Positions 13,264-31,319 of a stretch of 64,000 nt of DNA are shown here, in pieces; positions within the stretch are counted from its first letter, which is position 1; each line of letters begins with the position of its first letter. The stretch comes from Rathayibacter caricis DSM 15933 (GTDB lineage Bacteria; Actinomycetota; Actinomycetes; Actinomycetales; Microbacteriaceae). The notes under the pieces were generated by a model. The model saw nothing but the letters and a program-made list of their open reading frames with translations, ran no database searches and was not told the origin of the DNA. The stretch is taken from contig NZ_PZPL01000001.1 in assembly GCF_003044275.1 (NCBI RefSeq), positions 124,001 to 188,000 on the forward strand, written 5' to 3'. A program made the position numbers and the translations under genes.

Positions 13264-13272
13264 GGCCGCGAG

Positions 13273-14541: not shown

Positions 14542-15200
14542 GCGACGTCCGCGTCGTCCTCGTCGACGATCACGCCCTGATGCGCCAGGGCATCAGCACG
14601 ATCCTCTCGGTGCAGCCCGGCATCGACATCGTCGGTGAGGCCTCCAGCGGCGAGGAGGCCCTGGAGCTCGTCGCGAGGACACGCCCCGACGTGGTGTGCA
14701 TGGACGTCGAGATGCCGGGCATCGGCGGGATCGAGGCGACCAGACGCCTGCTCGCCGATCCGGAGTCGCCGGTGCGCGTACTCATGCTGACCACCTTCGA
14801 CCGCGAGGACTACCTGCTCGAGGCGCTCGACGCCGGCGCGAGCGGGTTCCTGCTGAAGAACTCCCCTCCGGAGCACCTGGTCTACGGGGTGCGGGCGATC
14901 GCGGCCGGGGAGGCGCTGCTCGCGCCCGAGCTGACCCGCGCGGTCATCGAGCGCGCGGTGGCCGCCGACCGGGTGCGGACCCCTGCGCCGAGCGGCACAG
15001 AGCCCGACCAGCTGACCCCGCGCGAGGTCGAGGTGCTGCGGCTGATGGCGCAGGGGCTCTCGAACGACGAGATCGCCGACCTGCTCGGAGTCGGCCGCGC
15101 GACCGTGAAGACCCACGTGTCGAACGTGCTGATGAAGCTGGCGCTGCGCGACCGGGTGCAGGCCGTCGTCTACGCCTACCGGTCCGGCCTCGTCGGCTGA
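14538..15200 (+). CDS. NarL/LuxR-family response regulator
   Basis: The 220-residue protein has a receiver domain (VVLVDDHALMRQG at 6-18, phospho-acceptor Asp about 56 in CMDVEMPGIGG, Lys in GFLLKNSPP) and a C-terminal LuxR helix-turn-helix (LTPREVEVLRLMAQGLSN, then DEIADLLGVGRATVKTHV). It overlaps the kinase stop by ATGA and is the cognate partner. It probably binds upstream of the ABC genes at 15308, where a TAGCGT -10-like hexamer is visible near 15273. Confidence 0.93.
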   Translation: MSDVRVVLVDDHALMRQGISTILSVQPGIDIVGEASSGEEALELVARTRPDVVCMDVEMPGIGGIEATRRLLADPESPVRVLMLTTFDREDYLLEALDAGASGFLLKNSPPEHLVYGVRAIAAGEALLAPELTRAVIERAVAADRVRTPAPSGTEPDQLTPREVEVLRLMAQGLSNDEIADLLGVGRATVKTHVSNVLMKLALRDRVQAVVYAYRSGLVG

Positions 15201-17567: not shown

Positions 17568-18071
17568 CTAGTCCGCGGTCCGCAGGCTGGTCGGGCCGGG
17601 GCGACGAGCCCGATGCAGGCGGAGGGCGCGGCGGAGGCGGTAGACGGGCCAGCGGAAGAAGGACCGGCCGGTGATCGAGACGACGTCGATGCGGACGAAG
17701 TTGTTCTTGTCGTCGTCGTGGAACGCCTCGAGCTGCTGGATCCCCGAGTTCTCGATGTCGATGTCGGAGTTCAGCCGGTGAGCGTCGCCGTGGACGACGA
17801 CGCTCCAGAAGCGCCGGCCGCGGTGCCCGTCGAACTCGAACGCGACGCGCGGGTGCTGGGTGATGTCCATCATCTTGCTGCCCGGGCCGCTGCGGAAGAA
17901 GATCGCTCCGTCGTGGACGAGGAAGTTGACGGGCACGATCGTGGCGCTCGGGCCGCGAGTGGACGGAGTGTGATCGATGACCGCGAGGCGGCCGATGTCC
18001 GTCGAGCGCGCCAGACGCCAGCACTCCTCAGTGGTCAGCTCGACGAGGGTGGTGTTCGATCGGGTGCTCAT
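17568..18071 (-). CDS. Pyridoxamine 5'-phosphate oxidase (PNPOx)-family protein
   Basis: The 167-residue protein has the FMN/F420-binding split-barrel pattern: 'GRLAVIDHTPSTRGPSATIVPVNFLVHDGAIFFRSGPGSK' and 'VAFEFDGH...WSVVVHG'. Such proteins (Rv3129-like) occur in DosR regulons of mycobacteria, where many bind F420 or heme. The start at 18071 is chosen because AGGAG lies 6 nt before ATG; an upstream in-frame ATG at 18101 would overlap the Usp stop (ATGA) and is the alternative. It is co-transcribed with the Usp gene. The reaction is unknown. Confidence 0.85.
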   Translation of the reverse strand: MSTRSNTTLVELTTEECWRLARSTDIGRLAVIDHTPSTRGPSATIVPVNFLVHDGAIFFRSGPGSKMMDITQHPRVAFEFDGHRGRRFWSVVVHGDAHRLNSDIDIENSGIQQLEAFHDDDKNNFVRIDVVSITGRSFFRWPVYRLRRALRLHRARRPGPTSLRTAD

Positions 18072-18097
18072 GGGCGTCTCCTGGTCTCGGTCGAGTG

Positions 18098-18961
18098 TCA
18101 TCCGGAGACCGCCGGGTCGGGGACGACGATCACGGGCCGGGAGGCGCCGCGCAGCGTGTCGTACGCGACAGAGCCGAGCAGGAGACGCTGGAGGCCGTGA
18201 CGGGAGGTGGCGCCGACGACGATCTCGAGGGCGTCCTTCCCGAGACGGGTGAGCACGGTCGCGGGGTCCCCGGTCTCGGATCTGCTGTGCACGCCGAGGT
18301 CCGGGAACTGCGCGTGAACGGCGGCGACTTCGAGGGCGAGCAGGTCGAGGCTGGCGGTCCGGAGCAGGTCGTAGAAGCCCTGGTCGGGGACGAAGCCGGG
18401 GACCCAGGCCTGCAGCGGTGTCCACACGTGGACGACGGTGAGCTGCTCGTCGAGCTCGGCCGCGTCCCTCGCGGCGAAGAGCACGGCGGCGCGTGCGGCC
18501 GGCGATCCGTCGATGCCGACGAGGATGCCGCCGTGATGTCCTGACTGCGGGGTCGGGATGACGGCGACCGGGGCTGTCGAGCGCGCGGCGAGGTCCACGG
18601 CGGGCGAGTGCCGGGTGCCGGGCTCCGCCCCGTTCCGGTCGTCGTGGGTTCCGACGACGATCATCCGGGCGCCTCGGGCGTCCTCGGTCAGCTCGTCGAC
18701 GGGGCGGCCGCGGCGCAGCGCGGTGGTGACGGAGATGTCGGGGGCCTTGGACGCTGCTCCGAAGGCGTCGCGGGCGAGGACGACCTCGCCGTGGGCCGCC
18801 TGGAGGCTCGCCGCGCCGGGATGCCCTGCGGCGGCATCGGTGTCGGAGACGAAGACGGCCAGGACCGGGGTGCCGGTGCGCTCCGCACGGCGCAGAGCCC
18901 AGTCGAGGGCGGCCCTGCTGTGGGAGGAGTCGGAGAGCCCGACGACGATGGGCGCGGTCAT
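18098..18961 (-). CDS. Universal stress protein, two Usp domains
   Basis: The 287-residue protein has two tandem Usp domains: residues 1-140 (IVVGLSDSSHSRAALDWALRR at the start) and 145-287 (ILVGIDGSPAARAAVLFAA; 'VVGATSRHGLQRLLLGSVAYD' ATP-binding G-2x-G-9x-G(S/T)-like loop; 'PVIVVP' end). Such tandem Usps bind ATP and accompany dormancy in actinobacteria. The gene is divergent from the BON gene; the 242-bp gap holds a DosR-like box at 19086-19100 about 125 bp from this start. It is followed by the PNPOx-like gene. Confidence 0.92.
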   Translation of the reverse strand: MTAPIVVGLSDSSHSRAALDWALRRAERTGTPVLAVFVSDTDAAAGHPGAASLQAAHGEVVLARDAFGAASKAPDISVTTALRRGRPVDELTEDARGARMIVVGTHDDRNGAEPGTRHSPAVDLAARSTAPVAVIPTPQSGHHGGILVGIDGSPAARAAVLFAARDAAELDEQLTVVHVWTPLQAWVPGFVPDQGFYDLLRTASLDLLALEVAAVHAQFPDLGVHSRSETGDPATVLTRLGKDALEIVVGATSRHGLQRLLLGSVAYDTLRGASRPVIVVPDPAVSG

Positions 18962-19085
18962 GACGCTCGATTCCACCCCGGTGCCGCGCGGTGCGGCGGT
19001 GAGGTCTTCTCTCGAGCGTGGGCGGAGGGAGGGCGGAGAGGTAGAGGCGAACGTCCCGGCTTCTGATCCGTGCCCGGGCGGTTCC

Positions 19086-19128
19086 GGGACCTTCGGCACT
19101 ACGGCCGCGACTGCGCGGTGCCTAGCGT
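19086..19128 (+). promoter_or_regulatory. DosR-like box and -10 hexamer (BON promoter)
   Basis: GGGACCTTCGGCACT (19086-19100) matches the imperfect palindrome seen at four other sites in the window. A TAGCGT -10 hexamer follows at 19123-19128, 38 nt from the C preceding the box. The next 60 nt to 19185 match the Asp23 leader at 21142-21242 base for base without gaps in most positions. The box may also serve the divergent Usp gene. Confidence 0.65.
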
Positions 19129-19203
19129 CGGTAGCAGGAGCGGCGGCACCAGCGCACACGCACGGTCGCGAGCCGTCTCCGCGATCACGGAGCAGGACGC
19201 ATC

Positions 19204-19875
19204 ATGACCCTCGCAGCCCCCGCACGCACCGATCACCAGATCCAGCTCGCCGTGCAGGACGAGTTGAACTGGACTCCGGACGTCGACGCCGCCACGATCG
19301 GAGTCGCCGTCGACCACGGCGCGGTCACGCTCTCGGGCGAGACCCCCACCTACCTCGAGCGCCTCCACGCCTGCACCGCGGCCCTCCGCGTGCACGGCGT
19401 GCGCACCCTCGTCGACGAGCTGACCGTCCACTCCGCCCGCTCCGCGTCGATCAGCGACGGCGACTTCGCCGAGAGCGTGCAGACCGCGCTCACGAGCGGA
19501 CGCTTCATCCCCGAGACCGTGACCGCCGAGATCCACGGACGCTCCGTCGTCCTCGCCGGAGAAGTGCACTGGGACTTCGAGCGCCAGAGCGCCCGCGACG
19601 CGCTCGCCCACGTCCCCGGCATCAAGGACGTCCTGTCGATGATCACCCTGCGCGCACGACCCAGCGCGGCGGACGCCCTGGTCCGGATCAGCGACGCGCT
19701 CGTGCGCGACGCGACGGTCGACGCCGGACGCATCAAGGCGCACCTCGACGGCACCCGGCTCGTTCTCAGCGGCACCGTCAGCAGCTGGCCCGAGCGTCGC
19801 GCCGCCGAGCGCGCCGCCTGGTCCTCGCCCAGCATCACGCACCTGCAGAACGACATCGTCGTCTCCTCCTACTGA
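19204..19875 (+). CDS. BON-domain protein, three tandem BON domains
   Basis: The 223-residue protein is three BON (phospholipid-binding) repeats: about 10-78 (IQLAVQDELNWTPDVDAATIG...), 83-150 (ESVQTALTSGRFIPETVTAEI..., ending in the LAGEVHWDFERQSARDALAHVPGIKDV match) and 155-223 (RISDALVRDATVDAGRIKAHL, VLSGTVSSWPERRAAERAAW). The G-x-V-x-L-x-G-x-V signature appears in each. No signal peptide is visible, so it is probably cytoplasmic or at the membrane face. BON proteins occur in bacterial osmotic and stress regulons. Its promoter carries the DosR-like box. Confidence 0.9.
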   Translation: MTLAAPARTDHQIQLAVQDELNWTPDVDAATIGVAVDHGAVTLSGETPTYLERLHACTAALRVHGVRTLVDELTVHSARSASISDGDFAESVQTALTSGRFIPETVTAEIHGRSVVLAGEVHWDFERQSARDALAHVPGIKDVLSMITLRARPSAADALVRISDALVRDATVDAGRIKAHLDGTRLVLSGTVSSWPERRAAERAAWSSPSITHLQNDIVVSSY

Positions 19876-19923
19876 AGCGGGACCCTCCCCCTCCTTCCCT
19901 CCCGACACGTGAATCGAGACCTC

Positions 19924-21009
19924 ATGAGAGCCGCACGCTTCCACGGCCCGCACGACATCCGCATCGACGACGTCCCCGAGCCGGAGCTCCGCCCCGGGGC
20001 CGTGGCGATCGACGTCGCCTGGTGCGGCATCTGCGGGACCGACCTGCACGAGTACCTGGAGGGTCCGATCTTCATCCCGCCCGCCGGGCACCCCCACCCG
20101 CTGACGCACGAGCAGGTGCCGGTCACGATGGGGCACGAGTTCAGCGGCACCATCACCGCCCTCGGCGACGGGGTGACCGACCTCGAGGTCGGCGCGAACG
20201 TCGTCGTCGAGCCGTACTCCGTCTGCGGGCACTGCGCTCCGTGCCTCGCCGGGCACTACAACCTCTGCACGAGCATGGGCTTCATCGGACTCGCGGGAGG
20301 CGGGGGCGGACTCAGCGAGAAGGTCGTCGTCGACCGGCGCTGGGTGCAGCCGATCGGCGGCATCCCGCTCGATCAGGCGGCACTGATCGAGCCCCTCGCG
20401 GTCGGGCACCACGCGTTCACCCGCAGCGGGGCCCAGCGCGGCGACACGGCGCTCATCGGCGGAGCGGGGCCGATCGGCCTCCTGCTCGCCGCGGTGCTCA
20501 CAGCGGAAGGCGTTCGAGTGATCATGTCCGAGCCCGGTGCCGCCCGGCAGGCGATGGCCCGCGAGACAGGAGTGGCCGATGTCGTCATCGACCCGACGAC
20601 CGAGGACCTCCTGGCCCGCGTGCACGAGCTCACCGACGGGATCGGCGTGGACGTCGCGTTCGAGTGCACGAGCGTCAACGCCGTCCTCGATCAGCTCATC
20701 GACGCCGTGAAGCCTGCGGGCGTGATCGTCAACGTCTCCATCTGGGGCAGCCGGGCGAGCATCGACATGCAGAAGCTGGTGCTGAAGGAGATCGATCTCC
20801 GCGGCACCATCGCCTACGTCGACGACCACCCCGCGACCATCGCCCTCGTCCAGTCCGGGAAGGTCGACCTCGCCCCCTTCATCACCGCGCGCATCCCGCT
20901 GGAACGCCTGATCGACGGCGGCTTCGACACCCTCATCGACCGCAAGGAGACCGCGGTGAAGATCCTGGTGGGCCCGCACCTGAGCGACCCGCTCCGAAGA
21001 ACCTCCTGA
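19924..21009 (+). CDS. Zinc-dependent alcohol dehydrogenase, 2,3-butanediol dehydrogenase-like
   Basis: The 361-residue MDR enzyme has the catalytic zinc Cys in WCGICGTDLHEYLEGP (about 37), GHEFSGTI (about 67), structural-zinc cysteines C-x2-C-x2-C-x7-C in CGHCAPCLAGHYNLC, and a Rossmann GGAGPIGLLLAA. The 'TDLHEYLEGPIFIP' motif is typical of 2,3-butanediol/acetoin dehydrogenases. It would re-oxidise NADH under low oxygen. The ATG at 19924 fits the family start; a GTG at 19909 is possible. It follows BON by 48 bp, probably co-transcribed from the DosR-like promoter. Confidence 0.9.
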   Translation: MRAARFHGPHDIRIDDVPEPELRPGAVAIDVAWCGICGTDLHEYLEGPIFIPPAGHPHPLTHEQVPVTMGHEFSGTITALGDGVTDLEVGANVVVEPYSVCGHCAPCLAGHYNLCTSMGFIGLAGGGGGLSEKVVVDRRWVQPIGGIPLDQAALIEPLAVGHHAFTRSGAQRGDTALIGGAGPIGLLLAAVLTAEGVRVIMSEPGAARQAMARETGVADVVIDPTTEDLLARVHELTDGIGVDVAFECTSVNAVLDQLIDAVKPAGVIVNVSIWGSRASIDMQKLVLKEIDLRGTIAYVDDHPATIALVQSGKVDLAPFITARIPLERLIDGGFDTLIDRKETAVKILVGPHLSDPLRRTS

Positions 21010-21019
21010 GGAGATCACC

Positions 21020-21124
21020 ATGACCGTCGAACACGCCGCCGCCTTCTCCGTCGACCCGGGCGGGACGGTGCTCATCCTGGGCGCCGACGCGCCCGCCGCG
21101 GATCCGGGTGACCTCGACCCCTGA
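21020..21124 (+). CDS. Small hypothetical protein, 34 residues
   Basis: A 34-codon frame begins ATG ACC GTC GAA with a strong ribosome site (GAGGAG, 6 nt before ATG) 10 bases after the dehydrogenase stop. It ends at TGA 21122-21124, before the Asp23 promoter box. The peptide is Ala/Asp-rich with no hydrophobic helix. It may be a real microprotein of the operon or a decayed gene start; no family is recognised. Confidence 0.45.
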   Translation: MTVEHAAAFSVDPGGTVLILGADAPAADPGDLDP

Positions 21125-21142
21125 TCCGCGCTCACCCGGCCC

Positions 21143-21185
21143 GGGACCTTCGGCCCTACGACCGCGGGAGCCCGCCCCGTAGCGT
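21143..21185 (+). promoter_or_regulatory. DosR-like box and -10 hexamer (Asp23 promoter)
   Basis: GGGACCTTCGGCCCT (21143-21157) is followed at the same distance as in the BON promoter by TAGCGT (21180-21185). The 101 nt from 21142 to 21242 align without gaps to 19085-19185, including the block GAGCCGTCTCCGCGAT. The box centre is about 32 nt upstream of the -10, as expected for a NarL/DosR-type activator site. Confidence 0.7.
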
Positions 21186-21271
21186 CGATCGCAGGAACGG
21201 CGGCACGATCGCAGACACGCGATCGTGAGCCGTCTCCGCGATGCCCGGTGACGGGCGGAGAAGGAGCCGTC

Positions 21272-21694
21272 ATGGCCGCCACACCCACGACCGCGGACCC
21301 GATCGTCTCGACCACCGCCACCGGCGGCGAGCTCGGGACCACGACCATCGACCAGGACGTCGTCGCGACCGTCGCCGGTCTCGCCGCGTCGGAGGTCACC
21401 GGCGTGCACGAGCTGGGCGGTGCCGCTACCCGCGTCCTCGGTGCCGTGCGCGGGGCACTCAACACCGTCAATCATCACCAGGGCGTCACCGTCGCCGTGA
21501 CCGAGCAGACGGTCGGCATCGACGTCACCTTCACGGCCGAGTACCCGATGAGCCTGCAGAAGGTCGCGTCCGACGTCCGTTCCGCGATCATCCTCGCGGT
21601 CGAGACCATCGTCGGCCTCGAGGTCACTGCGGTGAACGTGCGGATCAACGACATCGTCCTCCCCCGCGAGGAGACGACCGAGACCGCCGTCTGA
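21272..21694 (+). CDS. Asp23/Gls24 family envelope stress response protein
   Basis: The 140-residue protein has the Asp23 core: 'TTIDQDVVATVAGLAASEVTGVHELGG' then 'VTVAVTEQTVGIDVTFTAEYPMSLQKVASDVRSAI' and 'VGLEVTAVNVRINDIVLP' (quoted in parts). Asp23 proteins form membrane-associated filaments in Gram-positives and rise on envelope or alkaline stress. AAGGAG lies 5 nt before the ATG; an upstream frame start at 21248 lacks a site. It is the only gene behind the DosR-like box at 21143. Confidence 0.9.
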   Translation: MAATPTTADPIVSTTATGGELGTTTIDQDVVATVAGLAASEVTGVHELGGAATRVLGAVRGALNTVNHHQGVTVAVTEQTVGIDVTFTAEYPMSLQKVASDVRSAIILAVETIVGLEVTAVNVRINDIVLPREETTETAV

Positions 21695-21732
21695 CCCGAA
21701 TCGAACGGCGCACCACTGCACCCTCCCAGGCC

Positions 21733-22374
21733 CTACCGCGGACTGGGAGGGCGCAGCTCTGTCTGCAGGACGGCTGCCTGGGTGCGCCGCTCGAGGCCGA
21801 GCTTGCTCAGGACGCTGGAGACGTAGTTCTTGATCGTCTTCTCGGCGAGGGAGAGCTCGACGCCGATCTGCCGGTTGGTCATGCCGTCGGCGATCAGCGC
21901 GAGGATCCGCCGCTCGCGCTCGGTGAGCCCGGCGAGGCGCGGGTCGACCCCGTGCTCCCCGCGAAGGCGGGCGGCGACCGCGGCGACGATCGCCGGATCG
22001 AGGAGGATGTCGCCGGCTGCGGCCGCGCGGACGACGTCGACGAGGCCCTTGCCACGGATGTCCTTGAGCACGTATCCGGCGGCACCGGCGATGACGGCCG
22101 CGGAGAGGGCCTCGTCGTCGTCGTACGCGGTGAGGATCAGGCAGCGGATGCCCGGATCGCGGGAGCGCACGTCCCGGCACACGTCGATCCCGCTGCCGTC
22201 GGGGAGGCGCACGTCGAGCACGGCGACGTCGGGGCGCAGTGCGAGGATCTCGCGGAGCCCCGCTGCGGCGGTGCCGGCCTGACCGACGATCTCGAGGTCG
22301 GGCTCGGACCCGAGCAGCTCCGCGAGACCCCGCCGGACGATCTCGTGGTCGTCGAGGAGGAAGACGCGGGTCAT
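21733..22374 (-). CDS. devR: DevR/DosR-like response regulator
   Basis: The 213-residue NarL-family regulator has the receiver FLLDDHEIVRRGLAELLG, phospho-Asp 54 in VAVLDVRLPDGSGID, and LILTAYDDDEAL and YVLKDIRGKGL. The LuxR-type DNA-binding domain contains AEKTIKNYVSSVLSKLGLE plus RRTQAAV. Compared from memory with mycobacterial DevR (DosR), the receiver and helix-turn-helix, including the C-terminal RRTQAAV, are very close. It overlaps the kinase stop by ATGA. It is expected to bind the GGGACNNNCGGCCCT boxes around it. Orthology to DosR is strong but inferred without a search. Confidence 0.88.
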   Translation of the reverse strand: MTRVFLLDDHEIVRRGLAELLGSEPDLEIVGQAGTAAAGLREILALRPDVAVLDVRLPDGSGIDVCRDVRSRDPGIRCLILTAYDDDEALSAAVIAGAAGYVLKDIRGKGLVDVVRAAAAGDILLDPAIVAAVAARLRGEHGVDPRLAGLTERERRILALIADGMTNRQIGVELSLAEKTIKNYVSSVLSKLGLERRTQAAVLQTELRPPSPR

Positions 22375-24041
22375 GACTGCTCCGAGGGGATCGTCGGGAG
22401 GAACGGGACGCTCCAGCGCACGCGGGTGTCGCCGGGGACGCTGGTGATCGTGAACGAGCCTCCTCGAGCCCGAGCGCGCTGCTCGAGGTTCGCCAGACCG
22501 CTGCGCCGGCCGCCCTCCCTGAATCCGCCACCGTCATCGCTGAGCTCGAGGACGACGACGCCGTCGGCGACGGTCAGGTGCAGAGTGACGACGGTCGCCT
22601 CCGCATGACGGGCGATGTTGGTGAGGGCCTCGCGGGCGACCGCGAGGACGTCATCTGCGAGGTCGTCGACGACGAGGAGATCGACGGCGCCGGCGAAGCT
22701 GATGTTCGGGGTGCGCACGAGAACAGGCGCGAGCTCGTTGGCGAGGTCGAGGATCCGGTGACGGACGGTCCCGCTGCCGTCGTGGTTCGCGGTCAGGGCG
22801 AACACGACCGTCCGGATGTGGGAGATGCTCTCGTCCAGACTCGCGACCGCGCGCTCGATCCTCGTCGCGGCCCGTCCCGGCGGCAGCGCCCCGGCGGCCT
22901 GATGCAGGTCGAGGCCTGTGGCGAACAGCTCCTGGATGACGTGGTCGTGCAGGTCGCGCGCGATGCGCCCGCGGTCCTCGAGCAGCGCCATCCGCTGCTG
23001 ATCGGCTCGCGCGGCCGAGAGCTCCATCGCGACGCTGACGTAGGCCGCGAAATCGGACGCCATCTCGACGTCCGCGGTGGTGAAGAGCGGACGCCCGGGC
23101 CGGCGCGTCACGACGAGCACACCCAGCGCCCGGGAGGCGGCGATCAGGGGGACGGCGAGGACCGGGCCGCCGGACGTGGGCGTGCCGCCGTTCGTCGCCG
23201 TCATGATCCGATCGAGCACCCGTGGTTGGCCGCCGGCGAGGACGCTCCCCGAGATCGAGTCGCGCGCGTCGATCATCCGGCCCTCGAACGCCTCGGCCCC
23301 CACCCCCCGGGCGACACCGATGCGCAGCTGCTCGGGGTCCTCGGTCGGGAAGACGACGCCGACGAGATCCGCGCCCGCGAGATCGAGGATGCGCGTGGCG
23401 ACGAGGCCGATGACGTCGTCGTCGTCAGGGGCGAGGATCGCCGAGGTCATCTCGGCCGCTGCTTGCGCCCACCGTTGGCGGAGGCGCGTCTCGGCGTAGA
23501 GGCGGGCGTTGTCGATGGCGACGCCCGCGGTCGCCGCGAGCGCGATGACGAGGTGCTCGTCGTTCGAGGTGAAGGCGCCCGCGCGGGAATCAGTGAGATA
23601 GAGGTTGCCGAACACCTGATCGCGCACGCGGATCGGGACGCCGAGGAACGACTTCATCGGCGGGTGCCGGGCGGGGAAGCCGACGGCTCGGGAGTCGACG
23701 GTCAGGTCGGGGACGCGGATCGGGTGCGGATCGCCGATGAGCGCGCCGAGCAGGCCGTGGCCCTCCGGGAGGTGACCGATCGAGGCGACCAGGTCGGGCT
23801 CCATCCCGACGTGGAGGAACTCCTCCAGTGACCCGTCGCTCCCGATCACGCCGATGGCGCCGTACCGGGCGTCGACGAGTTCGACGGCGGCATCGACGAT
23901 GCGGCGCAGCACGGCCGGGAGGTCGATGTCCTCGACGACGGCGCGATTGGCGCGCAGGAGCGCTCGCAGGCGGCCTTGCACGCCGTCCTGGAGGGGACCG
24001 TCGACGCGACCCTCGCCTGACGACGGGTCGAGATGGGGCAT
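22371..24041 (-). CDS. devS: DevS/DosT-like sensor histidine kinase, two GAF domains
   Basis: The 556-residue protein has GAF-A at about 35-180 (GHLPEGHGLLGALIGDPHPIR... in parts, FPARHPPMKSFLGVP), GAF-B at about 205-345, a dimerisation box ARDLHDHVIQELFATG (phospho-His about 365), and a HATPase N-box AREALTNIARHAE with DDGGGFREGGRRSGL. The His at about 126 (HPPM) aligns, by memory, with the heme-ligating His149 of mycobacterial DevS, so it may sense O2, NO or CO. GGAG lies before the ATG at 24041. It is coupled to devR downstream. The membrane anchor is absent, as in DevS. Confidence 0.9.
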   Translation of the reverse strand: MPHLDPSSGEGRVDGPLQDGVQGRLRALLRANRAVVEDIDLPAVLRRIVDAAVELVDARYGAIGVIGSDGSLEEFLHVGMEPDLVASIGHLPEGHGLLGALIGDPHPIRVPDLTVDSRAVGFPARHPPMKSFLGVPIRVRDQVFGNLYLTDSRAGAFTSNDEHLVIALAATAGVAIDNARLYAETRLRQRWAQAAAEMTSAILAPDDDDVIGLVATRILDLAGADLVGVVFPTEDPEQLRIGVARGVGAEAFEGRMIDARDSISGSVLAGGQPRVLDRIMTATNGGTPTSGGPVLAVPLIAASRALGVLVVTRRPGRPLFTTADVEMASDFAAYVSVAMELSAARADQQRMALLEDRGRIARDLHDHVIQELFATGLDLHQAAGALPPGRAATRIERAVASLDESISHIRTVVFALTANHDGSGTVRHRILDLANELAPVLVRTPNISFAGAVDLLVVDDLADDVLAVAREALTNIARHAEATVVTLHLTVADGVVVLELSDDGGGFREGGRRSGLANLEQRARARGGSFTITSVPGDTRVRWSVPFLPTIPSEQS

Positions 24042-24177
24042 GCGTGCTCCGCTCCGCCGTCGGTCGGCTGACCCAGCACTCCATGATCGCGTGCGCCCCC
24101 TCACCGGGGGAACCGTTTCCCGGGAAGTGACCACCTCGTTCGCGGTATCGGGGTCGACGAGGGCTCCTCCGGGTATC

Positions 24178-24220
24178 GGGACGTTCGGCCCTGGGGACGG
24201 GCCCACGCCTCGATCAGGCT
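24178..24220 (+). promoter_or_regulatory. DosR-like box and -10-like hexamer (Usp promoter)
   Basis: GGGACGTTCGGCCCT (24178-24192) stands 38 nt (from the preceding C at 24177) before CAGGCT (24215-24220). It is the sole visible promoter element for the Usp gene at 24240; the divergent devS gene starts at 24041, about 137 bp on the other side. Confidence 0.6.
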
Positions 24221-24239
24221 CGGGTGAGGAGGTGACGTG

Positions 24240-25034
24240 ATGCCTGATCCGGTCGTGGTCGGAGTCGACGGCTCGGGTCCCAGCGACGCGGCGACGCGCT
24301 GGGCGATCGAGCGAGCCGCGCGTCTCAACCTCGATCTCGCGTTCCTGCACGCATCGGGTCGCGACGGTGATGGCGACGACGCCTCCCGCTCCGTCCTCGA
24401 CCGTGCCGTCATGAGCGCTCGCTCGCAGGCGGGCATCGGGCGGGTGCGCGGGCTGATGGTCCTCGGCGACGCGATGGAGCAGCTGATCACCGCGTCCGCC
24501 GAGGCGGCGATCGTCGTCGTCGGCAGCCACAAGACCGGATTCCTCCGCGGCCGTGTGTTCGGCTCGCGGAGCCTGCGACTCGTGGCAGGCGCGCTCTGCC
24601 CGGTGGCGATCATCCCGGAGGCCTCCGGCCGGACGCGGCGCGGCGTCGCCGTCGGTGTCGCCGACAGCTCGGCGGGGTCTCGCGCTGTGCGGTTCGCCGC
24701 GACGGAGGCCGCCGCCCTCGGGGAGGAGCTGACCCTGATCCACGGTGACATCAGCATTCCCCTCGGCAGCGCCGACCGCGACGTCGACACGGTCAGCGCA
24801 TCCGATCGCCTTCTCGCGGCCGCGCGCCGGCTGGCGATCGAGACAGCGCCGGGGCTGGCCGTCCATGTGCGGGGACTCCGACGCCCCGCGGCCGTCGCTC
24901 TCGCGGACGCCGCCCCCACCAGTCTCCTGCTCGTCCTCGCAGCGTCGAGCGGGCGGAGCGGAGCAGCCGTGGGACGGACGACTCACGACGTCCTGATGAA
25001 CCTGGCCGGCCCCGCAGTGGTCGTCCCGGCCTGA
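24240..25034 (+). CDS. Universal stress protein, two Usp domains
   Basis: The 264-residue protein starts MPDPVVVGVDGSGPSDAATRW and has two Usp domains (about 1-137 and 140-264). The first carries the loop VVVGSHKTGFLRGRVFGS, with PVAIIP at its end; the second is shorter and diverged (RRGVAVGVADSSAGSRA, PAVVVP). The ATG at 24240 is preceded by AGGAGG at 7 nt; a GTG three bases upstream is less well spaced. It is driven by the DosR-like box at 24178 and ends at a bidirectional terminator. Confidence 0.92.
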   Translation: MPDPVVVGVDGSGPSDAATRWAIERAARLNLDLAFLHASGRDGDGDDASRSVLDRAVMSARSQAGIGRVRGLMVLGDAMEQLITASAEAAIVVVGSHKTGFLRGRVFGSRSLRLVAGALCPVAIIPEASGRTRRGVAVGVADSSAGSRAVRFAATEAAALGEELTLIHGDISIPLGSADRDVDTVSASDRLLAAARRLAIETAPGLAVHVRGLRRPAAVALADAAPTSLLLVLAASSGRSGAAVGRTTHDVLMNLAGPAVVVPA

Positions 25035-25049
25035 GGGTCGGGGATCGAG

Positions 25050-25080
25050 GAAGGGCCGGGCGATGACCGCCCGGCCCTTC
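25050..25080. terminator. Bidirectional hairpin terminator
   Basis: A perfect 13-bp stem (GAAGGGCCGGGCG with its complement) and a 5-nt loop ATGAC lie between the convergent Usp and phosphoketolase genes. The plus side is followed by CCCCCC and the minus side by GGATCC-type sequence rather than a T-run; it serves both genes. Confidence 0.7.
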
Positions 25081-25093
25081 CCCCCTGCGCGAC

Positions 25094-27607
25094 CTACTGG
25101 AGCGCGGCAGCCCGCTCAGCCGCCTCGTGACCGTGCGGGTGGACATCGGCGCGGTGATAGGTCGCGCCCTGCGGGCCGCTCCCTGTCCAACTCCATTCGG
25201 CGACGGCCGGGATGTCGACGCCGTGCTCACGCGTGTACGCCCGGGCCTCGAGTCGCGCGTCCTGCATCCGCTGCCGGACGCCCGCCTCGCGGGCCGCTAA
25301 CCCGGGTACCCGGTCGAGCACGTCGAGGACGAGCCGGTACCGGTCGAGGTCGTTCAGCATCACCATGTCGAACGGAGTGGTCGTGGTCCCTTCCTCGATG
25401 AAGCCCCGCACGTGCAGGTTCGCGTGCCCGTGCCGGCGGTAGGTGAGCCGGTGGATCAGCCACGGATAGCCGTGGTACGCGAAGATCACGGGCTTGTCGG
25501 TGGTGAAGACGGCGTCGTAGTCCGCGTCGCTGAGCCCGTGCGGATGCTCACCCTCGCTCTGCAGGCGCATCAGGTCGACGACGTTGACGACCCGCACCTT
25601 CAGCGTCGGCACCTCGGCGCGCAGCAGGGCCGCGGCGGCGAGGACCTCGAGGGTGGGGACGTCGCCGGCGCAGGCGAGGACCACGTCGGGCTCCTCCCCC
25701 GCGATCTCCGACCCGGCCCAGCCGAAGACGCCGATGCCGCGGGTGCAGTGCTCGATCGCCTGCGGCATCGACAGCCAGTTCGCCTCCTGCTGCTTCCCGG
25801 CGACCACCACGTTGATGTAGTCGACGGAACGGAGGCAGTGGTCGTAGGTCGAGAGCAGGGTGTTCGCGTCGAACGGCAGGTAGACCCGCACGATGTCGGC
25901 CTTCTTGTTCATCACGTGGTCGATGAAGCCGGGGTCCTGGTGCGAGGTGCCGTTGTGGTCCTGCCGCCAGACGTGGGAGCTGAGCAGGTAGTTCAGCGAC
26001 GAGACGGGCCGGCGCCAGGCGATCTCGCGAGACGATTTCAGCCACTTGGCGTGCTGGTTGACCATCGAGTCGACGATGTGCACGAACGCCTCGTAGGAGT
26101 TGATCAGCCCGTGCCGGCCGGTGAGCAGGTAGCCCTCGAGCCAGCCCTGGCACTGGTGCTCGCTGAGCATCTCGACGACGCGGCCGGAGCGCGCGAGGTG
26201 GTTGTCCCTGTCGGCGACGCGGACCTGGGCGTCCCACTGCTTGTCGGTGACCTCGAACACGGCCTGCAGCCGGTTCGACGCGGTCTCGTCCGGTCCGAAG
26301 ATGCGGAAGTCGTGCGGGTTCGCGGCGATGACGTCGCGCAGCCAGGTGCCGAGCACCGTCGTCGCCGAGCTGGTCGTCGCTCCGGGCGAGGGCACGTCGA
26401 GGGCGTAGTCGCGGAAGTCGGGCAGGTGCAGCGGCCTCCGCAGCAGCCCGCCGTTCGCGATGGGATTCGCGCTCATCCGGCGCGCCCCCTCCGGGGCGAG
26501 TGCGGTGACGAGCGGCACGGGTGCGCCGGCCTCGTCGAACAGCTCGTCGGGCCGGTAGGAGCGCATCCACCGCTCGAGCACCGCGATGTGCTCGGGGTTG
26601 TCGCGGACGTTCGCGAGCGGCACCTGGTGCGAGCGCCAGCTGTTCTCGGCGGGCAGGCCGTCGATGAAGGCGGGGCAGGTCCAGCCCTTCGGGGTGCGGA
26701 GGATGATCATCGGCCACGCGGGCCGCCCGTCGAGTCGCCCCGACAGCGCATCGGCCTTGATCTCGGCGATCTGGTTCAACGCCAGGTCCATCACCGTTGC
26801 GAGGCGGCGGTGCACATCGCGCGGATCCTCGCCGTCGAAGCCGCCCGAGACGAGGTACGGGGTGTGCCCGTAGCCGCGCATCAGCTGCTCGAGCTCGCGT
26901 TCGGGGATGCGGGCGAGGACGGTCGGGTTCGCGATCTTGTAACCGTTGAGGTGCAGGATCGGCAGGACGACGCCGTCGTGCAGCGGGTCGACGAACTTGT
27001 TCCCGTGCCAGCTCGTCGCCAGCGGACCGGTCTCGGCCTCGCCGTCGCCGACGACAGCCGCGACGAGCAGGTCCGGGTTGTCGAAGACGGCGCCGTAGGC
27101 GTGCGAGAGCGAGTAGCCGAGCTCGCCGCCCTCGTGGATCGACCCGGGCGTCTCCGGAGCGACGTGGCTGGGGATGCCGCCGGGGAACGAGAACTGCCGG
27201 AACAGCTTGCGCATCCCGTCGGTACTGCGGTCGATGTCGTCGTAGACCTCGCTGTAGGTGCCGTCGAGATAGGTGTTCGCGACCATCCCCGGGCCGCCGT
27301 GGCCCGGGCCGGTGACGAAGATCGCGTTCAGATCGCGGTCGCGGATGACGCGATTGAGGTGCGCGTAGACGAAGTTCAGCCCCGGAGTCGTCCCCCAGTG
27401 CCCGAGCAGGCGCGCCTTGATGTGAGCGGCGGCGAGAGGTTCGCGCAGGAGCGGGTTGTCGAGGAGGTGGATCTGCCCGATCGACAGATAGTTCGCGGCG
27501 CGCCACCAGGCGTCCAGCTCGTCGAGGGACCGCTCCGAGAGGACCTGCGGTGCCCGTGACTGCCATCGGGCCGGTGGGGCGGTCTCGAGGAGATCGAGGA
27601 TGCTCAT
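25094..27607 (-). CDS. xfp: Phosphoketolase (xylulose 5-phosphate/fructose 6-phosphate)
   Basis: The 837-residue enzyme is of normal length for the XFP family. It has [15 protein letters not shown] near 40, [38 protein letters not shown] (TPP site), [20 protein letters not shown], and C-terminal [16 protein letters not shown] '[19 protein letters not shown]'. It cleaves xylulose 5-P or fructose 6-P to acetyl-P plus a triose or tetrose phosphate, giving acetyl-P (and ATP via acetate kinase) without oxygen. It begins inside the stop of the 4xUsp gene (ATGA), so it shares that DosR-like promoter. This ties fermentation to the low-oxygen island. Confidence 0.95.
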
Positions 27608-29397
27608 GCGGAGACCACCTCGTGCTGATCGCGCGTGGCGGCATCGAGAGGTCGCGCATCCGGGGGGCCGACCACGATGAGGGGCGTGTCGAGGTTGAGG
27701 ATCAGATCGCGGCTCACGGAACCGAGCACCAGTCGGCGCCAGCCCGAGAGTCCGCGGGTGCCGATGACGATCGTCGCCGCCTTCGGCGACAGATGGGCGA
27801 GGGCGTGCGCCGGATCGCCCCCGACCAGGTGCGTCTCGATGCGCACGTCGAAACCGCTCGCCCGAGCGACTCGCTCCGCAGCGTCGAGGATCGAGCGGTG
27901 GTCGGCCTCGAGCGAGCGGATGAACTCGCCGTCGAGGAGGAAGGTGCTGTCGTAGAGGGCAGGCTCGGTCCACGCGTGCACCAGGTGCAGCGTCTGCCCG
28001 CGTCGCGCCGCCTCTGCCGCGGCGACGACGATCGCCGCGTTCGACGCCGCCGAGCCGTCGACGCCGACCGCGACGCCGGTCAGCGCCGGGTCCAGGGTCT
28101 GCGGCACGATCGCGAACGGCCCGTGAGCCAGCGCGGGCAGATGAGCGCCGACCGAGAGCCCGAATCGCAACCGCGGGCCCTCGCGATCCTCCGTCCCCAC
28201 GACCAGGAGGGTGTCGGGTCGTGTCAGCGCGGCAAGGGTGTGCAGAACGAAGCCGCGGACGACCCGGCCGTGCAGGGCGACATCGGGAGCGGCGGCGCTG
28301 ACCTGCTCGAGCATCCGCGAGAGCTCCCGATCGTCCAGCGCGACCGCCTCGGCGGCGGCGATCGAATCGGGGACGCTCGCGGACTCGTCGGCGATCATGA
28401 CCACCTCGACGCTCCCGGACGTCTCACGGATCAGAGCCCACTCGACCGCGGATCGGGAGGGGGCGTCACCGCCCCAGGCGACGACGGTGCGGGTCGGTGC
28501 CTGACGCCGGGCGGGCGCTTCGACGATCGGCTTCGGCTTCGGCTTCGGCTTCGGAGCGGGGCTGCGCCGGCCGACGATGACGGTGGGAACGGCCAGGTTC
28601 ACGAGGACGTCGTGGCCGACGGAGCCGATCAGCATCCGCTCGAGACGGGAGACGCCTCCGTCACCGACCACGAGGAGCGCGCGACCGGAGGCCGCGTCGA
28701 GCAGAGATCGGGCCGCGACCCCGTCGACCTCGACGCCCTCGACGACCAGCCCGGGGTGCAGCCGGCGCGCCTCGGCGACGGCGTCCGCGAGGACCTCGGC
28801 GTGCTGAGCCGTGATGTCCCCGAGGAGCGTCTCGGGCGGGACGCCGTCGTTCCAGAGGAACGGCGTGCGCCAGGCGTGCAGGACGTGCAGCGTCTGCTGC
28901 GTGCGCGCCGCCCAGGAGGCGGCGAACGCGAGCGCGGCGCGGGCGTCGTCGGAGTCGTCGATCCCGACGAGCACCCCGGATCCGTCGCCCGCCGTGTCCT
29001 CGGTGATGATCGCGACGGGGCCGGCGGCTCTCCCGGCGAGTCGGGCGCCGATGCTCCAGCCGCCGCGGAGTGGGAGGAGAGTGCGTCGGCGGTCGCCGAC
29101 GACGAGCAGGGTGCCGGGGCCGGAGAGGCGGGCGAGCTGCTCGACCGGATGACCGATCAGCACTCGGGAGTGCACCACGGCGCCGGGGTTCGCTCGCTCC
29201 GCGTCGGCGGCCGCGGTCTCGACCGAGACGGCTCCGCCCGCGCGCGGATCGGCGCTGAGATCGTTGCCGCTGTACCGGTCGAGACCGTCGACGACCGCGA
29301 CGAGGAGGATCGACTCGGCCTTCTGCGCCAGTGCCCACTCGAGTGCGCGTCGCGCCGAAGCGGACCCGTCCCATCCGACGACGAGCTGTGCATTCAT
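27604..29397 (-). CDS. Universal stress protein with four Usp domains
   Basis: The 597-residue protein is two tandem-Usp units: domain 1 (1-133, [18 protein letters not shown]), domain 2 (139-278, [37 protein letters not shown]), then a linker with PKPKPKPK (around residue 285-293), domain 3 (about 307-440, diverged, [18 protein letters not shown]), and domain 4 (446-585, [44 protein letters not shown]). Domains 2 and 4 keep the ATP-binding loop; 1 and 3 are weaker. Common Usps have one or two domains. The gene heads a two-gene operon with xfp and sits behind a DosR-like box at 29464-29478. Confidence 0.92.
28531..28554. repeat. Hexanucleotide repeat encoding the Pro-Lys linker
   Basis: CTTCGG is repeated four times in tandem; on the coding strand it reads CCGAAG, giving (Pro-Lys)4 between the two Usp pairs of the 597-residue protein. 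The repeat number could change by slippage without shifting the frame, altering linker length. Confidence 0.8.
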
Positions 29398-29463
29398 CAG
29401 GCATCCCTTGCTGGCAGCCGGGTCCGGCTCCCTTCAGGCTCGCCCGAGCCGGACCGTGCGGAC

Positions 29464-29478
29464 AGGGCCGAACGTCCC
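29464..29478 (-). promoter_or_regulatory. DosR-like box (4xUsp-xfp promoter)
   Basis: On the minus strand the sequence is GGGACGTTCGGCCCT, identical to the box at 24178. GAGCCT stands 38 nt further on (minus direction), in the position of the -10 seen at the BON and Asp23 promoters. The start codon follows about 67 nt from the box. Confidence 0.65.
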
Positions 29479-29596
29479 GGGCTCCGCGACAGGAGACGCG
29501 GGCGCTCTCCTCATCGCTCGTTCCTGCACACGATCCACCTCGGGACAGTCGTCCTCCGGCTCGTCCTGCTGTTCCTCGTCCTCGGCGCCTGGCCGG

Positions 29597-30037
29597 TCAC
29601 AGCACCGCCGGGAGCGCCCGCTCGTCGAGGCGACGCAGGATCCCCCGCATCTCCTCCAGCAGCAGCGCCTGCTCGCGGTTGATCTCGAGCAGCACCTCGA
29701 TGTCGGCTCTCGCAGTCACGTCGGTCTCGAAATCGTGCTGGGAGAGCGCCGCGGCGATGCCGTCCTGACGCTTCGCCGCGATCAGCAGGATCGCCCCCTG
29801 CAGGCCCGCGAGCATGCTCAGGAACAGGTTCAGGAGGATGAACGGGTACTCGTCCCACCCCGCCGCGAACGAGTTCACGATCGCCCACACGAGCATGAAC
29901 GCGACGAAGCCGAAGACGAACCGCCAGCTGCCCATCGAGTTGCGCAGCACATCCGCCGCCCGTTCGCCGAAGGTCAGCGACCGACTGTGCTTCTGGTGCC
30001 AGGTGAAGGGGAGGGGCGTGCGATGCGGGCTCGTCAT
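29597..30037 (-). CDS. DUF1003 membrane protein
   Basis: The 146-residue protein is of the DUF1003 type: HSRSLTFGERAADVLRNSMGSWRFVFGF, two membrane helices (about 38-57 and 68-93, with WDEYPFILLNLFLSMLAGLQGAI), then RQDGIAAALSQHDFETDVTARADIEVLLEI and a helical C-terminus (sequence quoted in parts). The ATG at 30037 begins the conserved part; a longer frame upstream is spurious. It is transcribed away from the truncated flavodoxin, and the gap carries a DosR-like box. The function is unknown; DUF1003 genes are often near stress genes. Confidence 0.9.
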   Translation of the reverse strand: MTSPHRTPLPFTWHQKHSRSLTFGERAADVLRNSMGSWRFVFGFVAFMLVWAIVNSFAAGWDEYPFILLNLFLSMLAGLQGAILLIAAKRQDGIAAALSQHDFETDVTARADIEVLLEINREQALLLEEMRGILRRLDERALPAVL

Positions 30038-30086
30038 CGGGCGAGCGTACGTCGCCGGGTCAGGATCGCGGAGCGTGCGGCGGAAG

Positions 30087-30101
30087 GGGACCAACGGCCC
30101 T
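30087..30101 (+). promoter_or_regulatory. DosR-like box (flavodoxin-Usp promoter)
   Basis: GGGACCAACGGCCCT has the same ends as the other boxes with ACCAA in place of the central CTTC. It lies 71 nt before the GTG of the truncated flavodoxin gene and 50 nt before the divergent DUF1003 start. CAGAGT (30125-30130) is a plausible -10 about 39 nt from the box start. Confidence 0.55.
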
Positions 30102-30171
30102 ACTCCCGCCCGCTGAACAGAGCGCAGAGTGGAGACGGAGGCCCTCGCCGCCACTCATCGGAAGGCACCCC

Positions 30172-30447
30172 GTGCGCGCGCTCGTCGTCGACGAATCCCA
30201 GTTCGGAACCACCCACCGCATCGCCGAAGCGATCGGCCGTGGCCTCGCCGAGACTCTCGACGTCGAGGTCGTCGACGTCAACGCCGCACTCCGCCTGGAG
30301 GGCGTCGACCTGCTCGTCGTCGGCGGCGCCGCACACGTCCGCGGACTCTCCTCACCCCGGGCTCCGCTCCATCACGGCTCCCCTGAGGGTCCTCGTCGAC
30401 GCGCTCGCAGCGACATGGCCCGCGAGCGGCCGAGGGCATCGTCATGA
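30172..30447 (+). CDS. Truncated flavodoxin-like protein
   Basis: The 91-residue product begins with a good flavodoxin start: RALVVDESQFGTTHRIAEAIGRGL (FMN phosphate loop S-x-F-G-T-T-x-x-I) and continues 'VEVVDVNAALRLEGVDLLVVGGAAH' through about residue 60. The rest, 'RGLSSPRAPLHHG...', is low complexity and the C-terminal half of the fold is missing, although flavodoxin domains are usually 140-170 residues. GGAAGG lies 6 nt before the GTG. The TGA overlaps the next start (ATGA), so the truncated length looks fixed. It may be a relic still translated for coupling. Confidence 0.65.
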   Translation: MRALVVDESQFGTTHRIAEAIGRGLAETLDVEVVDVNAALRLEGVDLLVVGGAAHVRGLSSPRAPLHHGSPEGPRRRARSDMARERPRASS

Positions 30448-31319
30448 CAACACTCGTCGCCTGGGCCGGCACCACCGCCGCCCTCACCGCACTCGACTGG
30501 GCGATCTCGCGCGAATACCTGCTCGATCGCCATGTCATCCTCTGCCACGTCACCGCCCCCTCCGAGAAGCGCCCGACCCCTCACTCGGCACTCGTCGACC
30601 TCGCCGCAACCCTGCAGCGCGACCGTACGGGGATCCGCTTCACAGCCGAGCTCCTGCACGGCGACCCCGCCGAGCAACTCGAGCGCCGTTGCCAGGACGG
30701 CACCGTCCTCGTCGTCGGTACCGACGCGCGCAACGAGCACCCTCGCCGCTTCGAGCGCTCGCTCGGAATGGTGCTGACGCGACGCGGGACGATCGCCGTC
30801 GTCATCGTGCCGATCGACTCCAGCCACGGCGCCCCGGGAATCGTCATCGGGTACAACGGGTCCGCCGCCGCAGTGGCCGCACTGGCCTTCGCCGCTGACG
30901 AAGCCGACCGTCGGTCCGAGCCCCTCCGCATCGTGCAGAGCTGGCGTTTGCGCCCGATCGAGGAGGACGCGGCCGACTGCCCCGCCCATCGCATCGAGGA
31001 GAAGATCGACAGCCTCCGTCTCGACATCGCGCAGGTCGTCGCGTCTGTGCGCACAGAGCACCCCGCACTCGCCGTAGACCTCCGGTTCGCGCACGGCGAG
31101 ACCGTCCAGAGCCTCCTCGCTGCGGCCGGCGGCACCAGCCTCCTCGTCCTCGGCTCCGACGACCCCTCCCGCACCAGCACCCGCGAGAGCATCGATCACG
31201 CTGTGGTGATGCGGATGCACACCGCACTCGCCGTCATCCCCGCCGGCTTCGCCGAGCTCGTCGCTCGCGGCGACGCGTCACCCGAAGCGACTCGCTCGCG
31301 GCGAGCGCCTCTGCCGTGA
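30444..31319 (+). CDS. Universal stress protein, two Usp domains
   Basis: The 291-residue protein has two Usp-like domains (1-130 starting MTTLVAWAGTTAALTALDWA; 132-272 starting IVIGYNGSAAAVAALAFAA, with 'LLVLGSDDPSRTSTRESIDHAVVMRMHTALAVIP'). Both are diverged in the ATP loop (ERSLGMVLTRRGTIAVVIVP in domain 1). It overlaps the truncated flavodoxin stop and shares its DosR-like promoter. The last 20 residues are Arg/Ala-rich and unlike the family. Confidence 0.88.
   Translation: MTTLVAWAGTTAALTALDWAISREYLLDRHVILCHVTAPSEKRPTPHSALVDLAATLQRDRTGIRFTAELLHGDPAEQLERRCQDGTVLVVGTDARNEHPRRFERSLGMVLTRRGTIAVVIVPIDSSHGAPGIVIGYNGSAAAVAALAFAADEADRRSEPLRIVQSWRLRPIEEDAADCPAHRIEEKIDSLRLDIAQVVASVRTEHPALAVDLRFAHGETVQSLLAAAGGTSLLVLGSDDPSRTSTRESIDHAVVMRMHTALAVIPAGFAELVARGDASPEATRSRRAPLP

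What the first reader, a model, noticed from the sequence alone, without database searches (positions are those of the whole stretch)
17568..31319. A compact DosR-like regulon surrounding its own devRS genes
Within 13.7 kb the DevR/DevS pair is flanked by four Usp genes (ten Usp domains), a PNPOx-like protein, BON and Asp23 proteins, an alcohol dehydrogenase and a phosphoketolase. Five imperfect palindromes with the form GGGAC-N3-CGGC(C/A)CT stand before these genes: 19086, 21143, 24178, 29464 (minus) and 30087. Mycobacterial DosR boxes have a related GGGAC...GNCCC core (established knowledge). Phosphoketolase, BON and Asp23 are not classical mycobacterial DosR members, so this may be a low-oxygen module specific to this family.
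Basis: partly seen in the sequence, partly recalled or inferred. Interest (0 to 1): 0.85.

Follow-up and report, generated by a model that had tools for sequence, protein, structure and literature searches.

The report
Self-contained low-oxygen regulon with phosphoketolase
A bacterium related to Rathayibacter carries, in one 14 kb block, a version of the oxygen-sensing dormancy switch known from tuberculosis bacteria together with most of the genes it appears to control, among them a sugar-splitting enzyme, phosphoketolase.

Summary
Five exact boxes precede genes; outside the cluster the count is at control level. GGGAC-N4-GNCCC is the published DosR/OsdR box, and DevR and DevS are DosR/DosT-type by sequence. 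In 40 relatives' devRS loci the N4 spacing occurs 92 times against 5-15 at eight other spacings, with a -10-like A...T at a fixed distance in 45 of 92, which would centre the box near -42.5. A profile from relatives ranks the five boxes 1-4 and 6 in the genome. Phosphoketolase is a recurrent target: a box promoter precedes xfp in 14 of 46 devS-bearing and 0 of 32 devS-lacking genomes examined. The cluster xfp is a second isozyme. asp23 and bon share a duplicated 102-nt promoter. The cluster lies elsewhere in one congener; two have no devS match. It is not family-specific: Streptomyces OsdR uses the same box and xfp lies near some OsdK genes. A new variant of a known regulon; DNA binding and oxygen control are inferred, not shown.

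The parts
17568..18071 (-). PNPOx-like protein (PF12900), behind usp2a
   Evidence: Pfam E 3.7e-18; 27 of 40 relatives' loci carry a homologue
18098..18961 (-). two-domain universal stress protein (usp2a)
   Evidence: Pfam Usp 4.2e-37, 2 stretches
   Evidence: Matrix without same-genus rows: fifth in the window with the -10 included, sixth for the box alone; identical 17-mer with an A...T at the same spacing in SD072, Leaf185 and VKM Ac-2754; not listed by profile R1
19015..19020 (-). -10-like CACGCT for usp2a
   Evidence: positions +37..+42 from box start
19086..19100 (+). DosR-type box before bon-adh
19123..19128 (+). -10-like TAGCGT
19204..19875 (+). three-BON-domain protein
   Evidence: Pfam 2.6e-30, 3 stretches
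19909..21009 (+). zinc-dependent medium-chain dehydrogenase
   Evidence: Pfam ADH_N, ADH_zinc_N; no NCBIfam cut-off reached
21141..21242 (+). duplicated promoter segment, 80% identical to 19084-19185
   Evidence: the repeat finder D2
21143..21157 (+). DosR-type box before asp23
21180..21185 (+). -10-like TAGCGT
21272..21694 (+). Asp23-family protein
   Evidence: Pfam PF03780 4.8e-22
21733..22374 (-). DevR/DosR-type response regulator
   Evidence: best PDB match 3c3w DevR E 1.4e-72; D54, K104, K179, K182, N183 at DosR numbering
22371..24041 (-). DevS/DosT-type GAF-GAF histidine kinase
   Evidence: GAF-A matches solved DevS chains and 2vzw (DosT, recalled) at E 1e-42 to 1e-47; H126=His149, Y148=Tyr171, G64 at Glu87 by alignment offset
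24178..24192 (+). DosR-type box before uspB, in the devS-uspB divergent region
   Evidence: best profile hit of the genome, 29.4 bits
24215..24220 (+). -10-like CAGGCT
24240..25034 (+). two-domain universal stress protein (uspB)
   Evidence: Pfam 4.2e-21, 2 stretches; 30 of 36 homologous places in relatives have a box promoter
25094..27607 (-). phosphoketolase (xfp), overlapping usp4 by 4 bp
   Evidence: Pfam XFP_N/XFP/XFP_C; second copy at G000:C1:2199062-2201476, 72% identical
27604..29397 (-). multi-domain universal stress protein (usp4, 597 aa)
   Evidence: Pfam Usp 7.8e-46, 3 stretches
29464..29478 (-). DosR-type box before usp4-xfp
29436..29441 (-). -10-like GAGCCT
30087..30101 (+). DosR-type box before flavodoxin-like remnant and uspC
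30125..30130 (+). -10-like CAGAGT, one base further than the others
30172..30447 (+). flavodoxin-like ORF, similar to relatives only over about its first 60-72 residues
   Evidence: Pfam Flavodoxin_5 below cut-off; tblastn
30444..31319 (+). universal stress protein (uspC)
   Evidence: Pfam 4.8e-11

Best explanation
This is a DosR/OsdR-type regulon in a Rathayibacter-related bacterium, packed largely around its own devRS genes. Inferred mechanism: DevS GAF-A holds a heme on His126; with O2 bound the kinase is off, and loss of O2 (or NO/CO binding) turns it on; DevR is phosphorylated at Asp54 and binds GGGAC-N4-GNCCC boxes centred near -42.5, overlapping -35, and so activates six transcription units: usp2a-pnpox, bon-adh, asp23, uspB, usp4-xfp and fld'-uspC. 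The output is several Usp proteins plus a dedicated second phosphoketolase, which would make acetyl phosphate (ATP through the genome's acetate kinase) when respiration fails. Shown by computation: boxes, spacing, -10-like register, residue conservation, gene content, xfp linkage. Inferred: operon limits, heme, gas response, DNA binding, induction, metabolic role.
For: DevR best PDB match is Mtb DevR (1.4e-72; next VraR 2.8e-39). D54, K104, K179, K182, N183 are kept in 40 of 40 relatives, heme His and distal Tyr in 40 of 40. Spacing-specific enrichment: N4 92 against 5-15 at N0-N3 and N5-N8; A...T starting at +38 in 45 of 92 against a mean of 1.71 elsewhere. The profile of 45 relatives' promoters (5 from the same genus) puts the window's five boxes at ranks 1-4 and 6 of the genome. 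Profile hits at E<=0.01 in 11 of 15 devS-bearing genomes whose loci were not in the model and in 1 of 15 devS-lacking ones. xfp promoters at score 15 or more: 14 of 46 devS-bearing against 0 of 32 devS-lacking genomes, Fisher p 2e-4 without correction for kinship. Acetate kinase gene in 4 of 4 Rathayibacter genomes tested. The box equals published OsdR sites (PMC5069765, Table 1).
Against: No binding, transcript or heme data. Four of 15 unseen devS-bearing genomes have no profile hit at E<=0.01 and one devS-lacking genome has one. 32 of 46 devS-bearing genomes lack a direct xfp box (here too xfp has none of its own and sits behind usp4). At the laxer score of 10 one devS-lacking xfp region and one reversed control also pass. 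devRS has no promoter-shaped box (score 5.5), unlike osdR. Some control spacings show a few A...T at the same place: N2 3 of 33 and N3 3 of 24 at +38 and 4 of 24 at +39, Streptomyces N5 9 of 84 at +39. Related genomes are not independent, so p values overstate.
Confidence: 0.85

Rival explanations
1. The boxes are read by DevR but the signal is not low oxygen: a redox, starvation or other stress input, with the Usp genes as general stress outputs.
For: S. coelicolor OsdR controls stress and development genes (PMC5069765, abstract). Usp, BON and Asp23 are stress or envelope families. No nitrate respiration or hspX gene was seen among the cluster genes.
Against: Heme ligand His149, distal Tyr171 and a Gly at the Glu87 position in 40 of 40 DevS; Glu87 to Gly gives DosS a stable oxy complex (PMC4082495, passages). 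Phosphoketolase fits energy supply without respiration.
Confidence: 0.2
2. The boxes belong to another NarL-type regulator and devRS is a neighbour by chance.
For: Another LuxR/NarL-type response regulator is encoded nearby (in ORF 13014-15200), and NarL-type regulators bind short palindromes (recalled).
Against: Profile-level boxes follow the presence of devS across genomes, and so do boxes before xfp; the sequence is that bound by OsdR (PMC5069765).
Confidence: 0.05
3. Box clustering reflects compositional bias or recent duplication rather than function.
For: One pair of promoters is a duplication (21141-21242 and 19084-19185, 80%), so the five boxes are not five independent events. Window GC is 72%. 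With two mismatches allowed the pattern is not enriched in the window (23 against 40 expected).
Against: Other spacings and reversed patterns lack the signal; boxes recur before the same kinds of genes in other genera; the A...T register is strong for N4 boxes and weak or absent for other spacings.
Confidence: 0.02

Closest known systems
OsdR/OsdK regulon of Streptomyces coelicolor
   Same: Same palindrome (CGGGACCTTCGGCCCT and AGGGACCTTCGGCCCC in its Table 1); Usp, dehydrogenase and PNPOx targets, many of them near the regulator genes (PMC5069765, section 7 read)
   Different: There sites before 27 predicted transcription units over the genome, with nitrate reductase and PPDK, and a box at osdR. 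Here six units in one block, no promoter-shaped box at devRS, and phosphoketolase, BON and Asp23 as members
DosR/DevR dormancy regulon of Mycobacterium tuberculosis
   Same: Regulator, heme-kinase residues, box consensus GGGHCNWWNGNCCC (as printed in PMC2947987), box overlapping -35 (PMC3029386, passages), Usp targets
   Different: About 48 genes there (PMC4973870, abstract in listing); here a small set around devRS with a phosphoketolase
Putative DosR boxes in Rhodococcus equi
   Same: DosR boxes reported and an Xfp noted in the same genome (PMC2947987, passages and section 16 read)
   Different: The passages seen do not link Xfp to DosR; its Table S6 was not seen

Membership tests
DosR/DevR response regulator | Closest solved relative and phosphorylation/DNA-contact residues (D54, K104, K179, K182, N183) | tested here: met
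   3c3w DevR E 1.4e-72; residues at the same numbers, 40 of 40 relatives. D54: PMC3029386 passage. K182: PMC5999986 abstract in listing. K179 and N183 recalled
DosS/DosT heme kinase | Proximal His149/147 and distal Tyr171/169 in GAF-A | tested here: met
   H126 and Y148 by alignment offset, 40 of 40; roles from PMC4082495 passages. Heme binding itself not testable here
DosT-like oxygen sensor rather than DosS-like redox sensor | Gly instead of Glu at position 87 (stable oxy complex) | tested here: met
   Gly in 40 of 40 relatives and 80 of 80 named loci; significance from PMC4082495 passages
DosR regulon | Box GGGHCNWWNGNCCC before target genes | tested here: met
   21143, 24178, 29464 and 30087 fit; 19086 and the sixth box deviate at one base each
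DosR regulon | Proximal box overlaps the -35 element | tested here: inconclusive
   Fixed -10-like register would put the centre near -42.5, but no transcription start is mapped
DosR regulon | Universal stress proteins among targets | tested here: met
   Four Usp genes behind boxes; in relatives uspB-like 30 of 36 places, usp2a-like 8 of 11, usp4-like 20 of 47, other ORFs 24 of 410
DosR/OsdR regulon | Regulator gene carries its own box | tested here: not met
   Best promoter-shaped score before devS 5.5; among the 40 relatives the best is 14.7 and the next 6.0. The uspB box lies about 150 bp upstream in the reverse sense
DosR regulon | Induction by hypoxia, NO or CO through DevR | not testable with these tools
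   needs experiments
DosR regulon | nitrate transport, hspX, nitroreductase members elsewhere in the genome | not tested
   not searched genome-wide

The most novel reading that the evidence does not exclude
Across much of this family the DosR-type switch has become the control of a fermentative energy module. It turns on a dedicated phosphoketolase whose product, acetyl phosphate, gives ATP through acetate kinase and may also phosphorylate DevR directly, closing a positive feedback loop from oxygen loss to sustained dormancy. The whole circuit moves as one block and gains members by copying its promoter in front of new genes, as with asp23.
Probability: 0.3. Interest if true: 0.72.

Novelty: new variant of a known kind. 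Interest (0 to 1): 0.52.

Why it matters
DosR-type dormancy control is studied mostly in mycobacteria. Here it appears as a compact block in a different actinobacterial family, with a regular promoter geometry that makes binding sites predictable. It nominates phosphoketolase as a conserved target, which would give the dormancy switch a direct role in non-respiratory energy supply. It also offers a traceable case of two regulon genes sharing a duplicated promoter.

Tried and rejected
The loose pattern GGGACNNNNGGCCC with one mismatch gave 622 genome hits and a control of 1016, so it cannot discriminate. My first regular expression put the A/C choice one base off; corrected. A first look at xfp upstream regions used the wrong orientation for minus-strand loci; corrected. 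A tRNA-borne island was considered: the only tRNA in the window is at 50550-50623, not at the cluster edge, and cluster GC (0.713) is close to the flanks (0.729, 0.722), so recent foreign origin is not shown. Streptomyces-type loci mostly lack a promoter-shaped box directly before xfp: of 13 loci one was too short, and of the other 12 the best scores were 15.7, 14.6 and 11.5, the rest below 0, so direct control there is not supported by my model, which was built on relatives of the window. The second xfp of this genome has only a weak half-site 26 bp before its aligned start (E 2.4; score 5.7). One devS-lacking Rathayibacter genome (G045) has a single profile hit; its context was only printed, not analysed. 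Tree building and structure prediction were not done. Literature: among the rows listed I saw no paper that links phosphoketolase to DosR, DevR or OsdR; PMC5435760 and PMC6456759 hold both words and were not opened, the listings show only 10-20 of many papers each, and the library holds open-licence papers only.
Full report
What was checked. The five boxes exist exactly as given. In the whole 4.12 Mb genome the same 15-letter pattern occurs nine times, five of them within 11 kb here; the reversed control pattern occurs nine times. Taking the density of nine per genome, five or more in 11 kb has a Poisson probability of 7e-11. A tighter 14-letter pattern with an A/T centre gives ten places, five here and five elsewhere, with five control matches. 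So the exact boxes are more than chance, and outside this cluster they are at control level. With two mismatches allowed the window shows no excess (23 matches, 40 expected).

Organism. The nearest named record is Rathayibacter sp. SD072 (DevS 99% identical), then Rathayibacter sp. Leaf185 and VKM Ac-2754 at 84%. A devS match at E<=1e-30 is found in 72 of 199 genomes and 44 of 85 genera (only the best few candidates of each genome are scored there).

Regulator and sensor. DevR matches Mtb DevR better than any other solved protein (1.4e-72; the next is VraR at 2.8e-39). Asp54, Lys104, Lys179, Lys182 and Asn183 stand at the same numbers as in DosR and are kept in 40 of 40 relatives. DevS GAF-A aligns with solved DevS chains and with 2vzw, which I recall as DosT. 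By alignment offset the proximal heme His149 is His126 here, Tyr171 is Tyr148, and Glu87 is Gly64. In DosS, changing Glu87 to Gly or Ala gives a stable oxy complex, and DosT has Gly there (PMC4082495, passages). All 40 relatives have Gly, His and Tyr, so a DosT-like direct oxygen sensor is predicted.

The box. Written as 14 letters it is GGGAC-N4-GGCCC. This fits GGGHCNWWNGNCCC, the DosR consensus printed in PMC2947987 (passages), and its core is letter for letter among the OsdR sites of Streptomyces coelicolor (PMC5069765, Table 1). I fetched 20 kb around devS from 40 relatives, 40 of the 72 genomes with a match. GGGAC-Nk-GKCMC occurs 92 times with k=4 and 5 to 15 times at k=0-3 and 5-8. Of the 92, 62 lie outside ORFs of a crude caller (coding fraction 0.79); for spacings 2, 3, 5 and 6 it is 14 of 35. 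A base pattern A...T starts at +38 from the box start in 45 of 92, at +37 in 7 and at +39 in 8, against a mean of 1.71 and a maximum of 4 at other offsets. Other spacings show it weakly or not: N2 3 of 33, N3 3 of 24 (and 4 at +39), N5 1 of 26, N6 0 of 23, N7 0 of 16 (with one letter choice misplaced). In the Streptomyces-type loci N4 is also commonest (165 against 31-84) and the A...T peak is at +39 (39 of 164), but N5 has 9 of 84 there too. If that A...T belongs to a -10 hexamer ending at -7, the box centre is at -42.5. In Mtb the proximal DevR site overlaps -35 (PMC3029386, passages). The window's boxes have TAGCGT, TAGCGT, CAGGCT and GAGCCT at this position, and CAGAGT one base later for 30087.

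A sixth box. A matrix built without same-genus rows ranks a minus-strand site at 19042-19058 fifth in the window when the -10 is included, above 30087, and sixth on the box alone. The profile R1 did not list it. With it, each transcription unit of the cluster as I draw them, except devRS and the DUF1003 gene, has a box.

Genome-wide profile. R1, built from 45 promoters of relatives (5 of them from the same genus), puts window boxes at ranks 1, 2, 3, 4 and 6 of the whole genome; the fourth scores 22.7 bits and the best outside hit 16.8, equal to 30087. Of 21 outside hits up to E 10, I inspected nine: eight lie in called ORFs and the ninth lacks an A...T at the expected place. The other 12 were not inspected, except that one lies just before the second xfp. 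Among 30 relatives not used for the model, 11 of 15 with devS and 1 of 15 without have a hit at E<=0.01.

Members. In the 40 loci, tblastn finds homologues of uspB in 33, PNPOx in 27, usp4-like in 20, xfp in 11, usp2a-like in 10, the dehydrogenase in 9, BON in 6, DUF1003 in 3, uspC in 1 and Asp23 in none. A promoter-shaped box (score 15 or more) precedes 30 of 36 uspB-like places, 20 of 47 usp4-like, 8 of 11 usp2a-like, 12 of 35 PNPOx, 4 of 7 BON, 4 of 8 dehydrogenase, 4 of 10 xfp, and 24 of 410 other ORFs. The matrix was trained on boxes from these same loci, chosen by sequence and not by gene.

Phosphoketolase. This genome has two: the cluster copy and one at C1:2199062-2201476, 72% identical. 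The two congeners without a devS match (G045, G171) have one each, 72% identical. Of 119 places listed, I examined the upstream region of 90; the other 29 were left out, three for fear of short contigs and the rest mostly with lower scores. At score 15, 14 of 46 devS-bearing genomes have a box promoter before xfp and 0 of 32 devS-lacking ones, Fisher p 2e-4 (by region 14 of 56 against 0 of 34, p 6e-4); reversed sequences give none. At score 10 it is 16 of 56 against 1 of 34 regions, with one reversed control. The 14 come from ten genera; in two of them the site is 535 and 595 bp away and may serve another gene; one (G130) was in the training set. Some are not beside devRS: profile hits sit just before xfp on another contig in G037 and 71 kb from devS in G078. 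So xfp is preceded by the box in some genomes where it is not a neighbour. In the window it has no box of its own and follows usp4 with a 4 bp overlap.

Evolution of the block. The 102 nt at 19084-19185 and 21141-21242 are 80% identical: the promoter before bon was copied before asp23, or the reverse. asp23 is present in the SD072 and VKM Ac-2854 loci and absent from the Leaf185 and VKM Ac-2754 loci. In G116 the genes that flank the window's cluster (ABC permease and M18 peptidase) lie 1.5 kb apart on contig C2, the peptidase inverted, while the devRS cluster is on C22. The block therefore stands at different places within the genus; whether it moved or was gained twice is not decided.

How it most likely works. 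Low oxygen frees the DevS heme, DevR is phosphorylated, and the six promoters fire from sites overlapping -35. The Usp proteins would slow or protect the cell; phosphoketolase would supply acetyl phosphate, and the genome has an acetate kinase gene. OsdR is phosphorylated by acetyl phosphate in vitro (PMC5069765, passages), so the enzyme's product could also feed back on DevR. That last step is a proposal only.

Novelty. The system is a member of the DosR/OsdR kind by regulator, sensor residues, box and Usp core. It differs in compactness, in lacking a promoter-shaped box at devRS, and in its members. Among the rows listed by searches of the held library I saw no paper that links phosphoketolase to DosR, DevR or OsdR; the passages of PMC2947987 mention both but separately, and two listed papers that hold both words were not opened.

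Noticed in passing
window 21020-21124 (+): A 34-aa ORF follows the dehydrogenase gene closely; no Pfam match. Its conservation was not tested.
   Followed up: no
window 30172-30447 (+): Flavodoxin-like ORF that resembles relatives only over about its first 60-72 residues, behind a DosR-type box; similar matches stand in 7 of 40 relatives' loci and 5 of 80 named loci. Looks like a decayed former member.
   Followed up: partly
G000:C1:2201502-2201537 (-): Weak half-box with -10 just before the second phosphoketolase gene (E 2.4).
   Followed up: partly
window 38932-38947: Perfect palindrome GGGCCGATCGGCCC, close to the S. coelicolor OsdR consensus, but inside a called ORF.
   Followed up: no
G045:C4:422350-422393: A promoter-like profile hit (E 0.005) in a Rathayibacter genome without a devS match.
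   Followed up: no
G116:C2 589129-593187: The genes flanking the window's cluster lie 1.5 kb apart here, with the peptidase gene inverted; the cluster is on another contig.
   Followed up: partly
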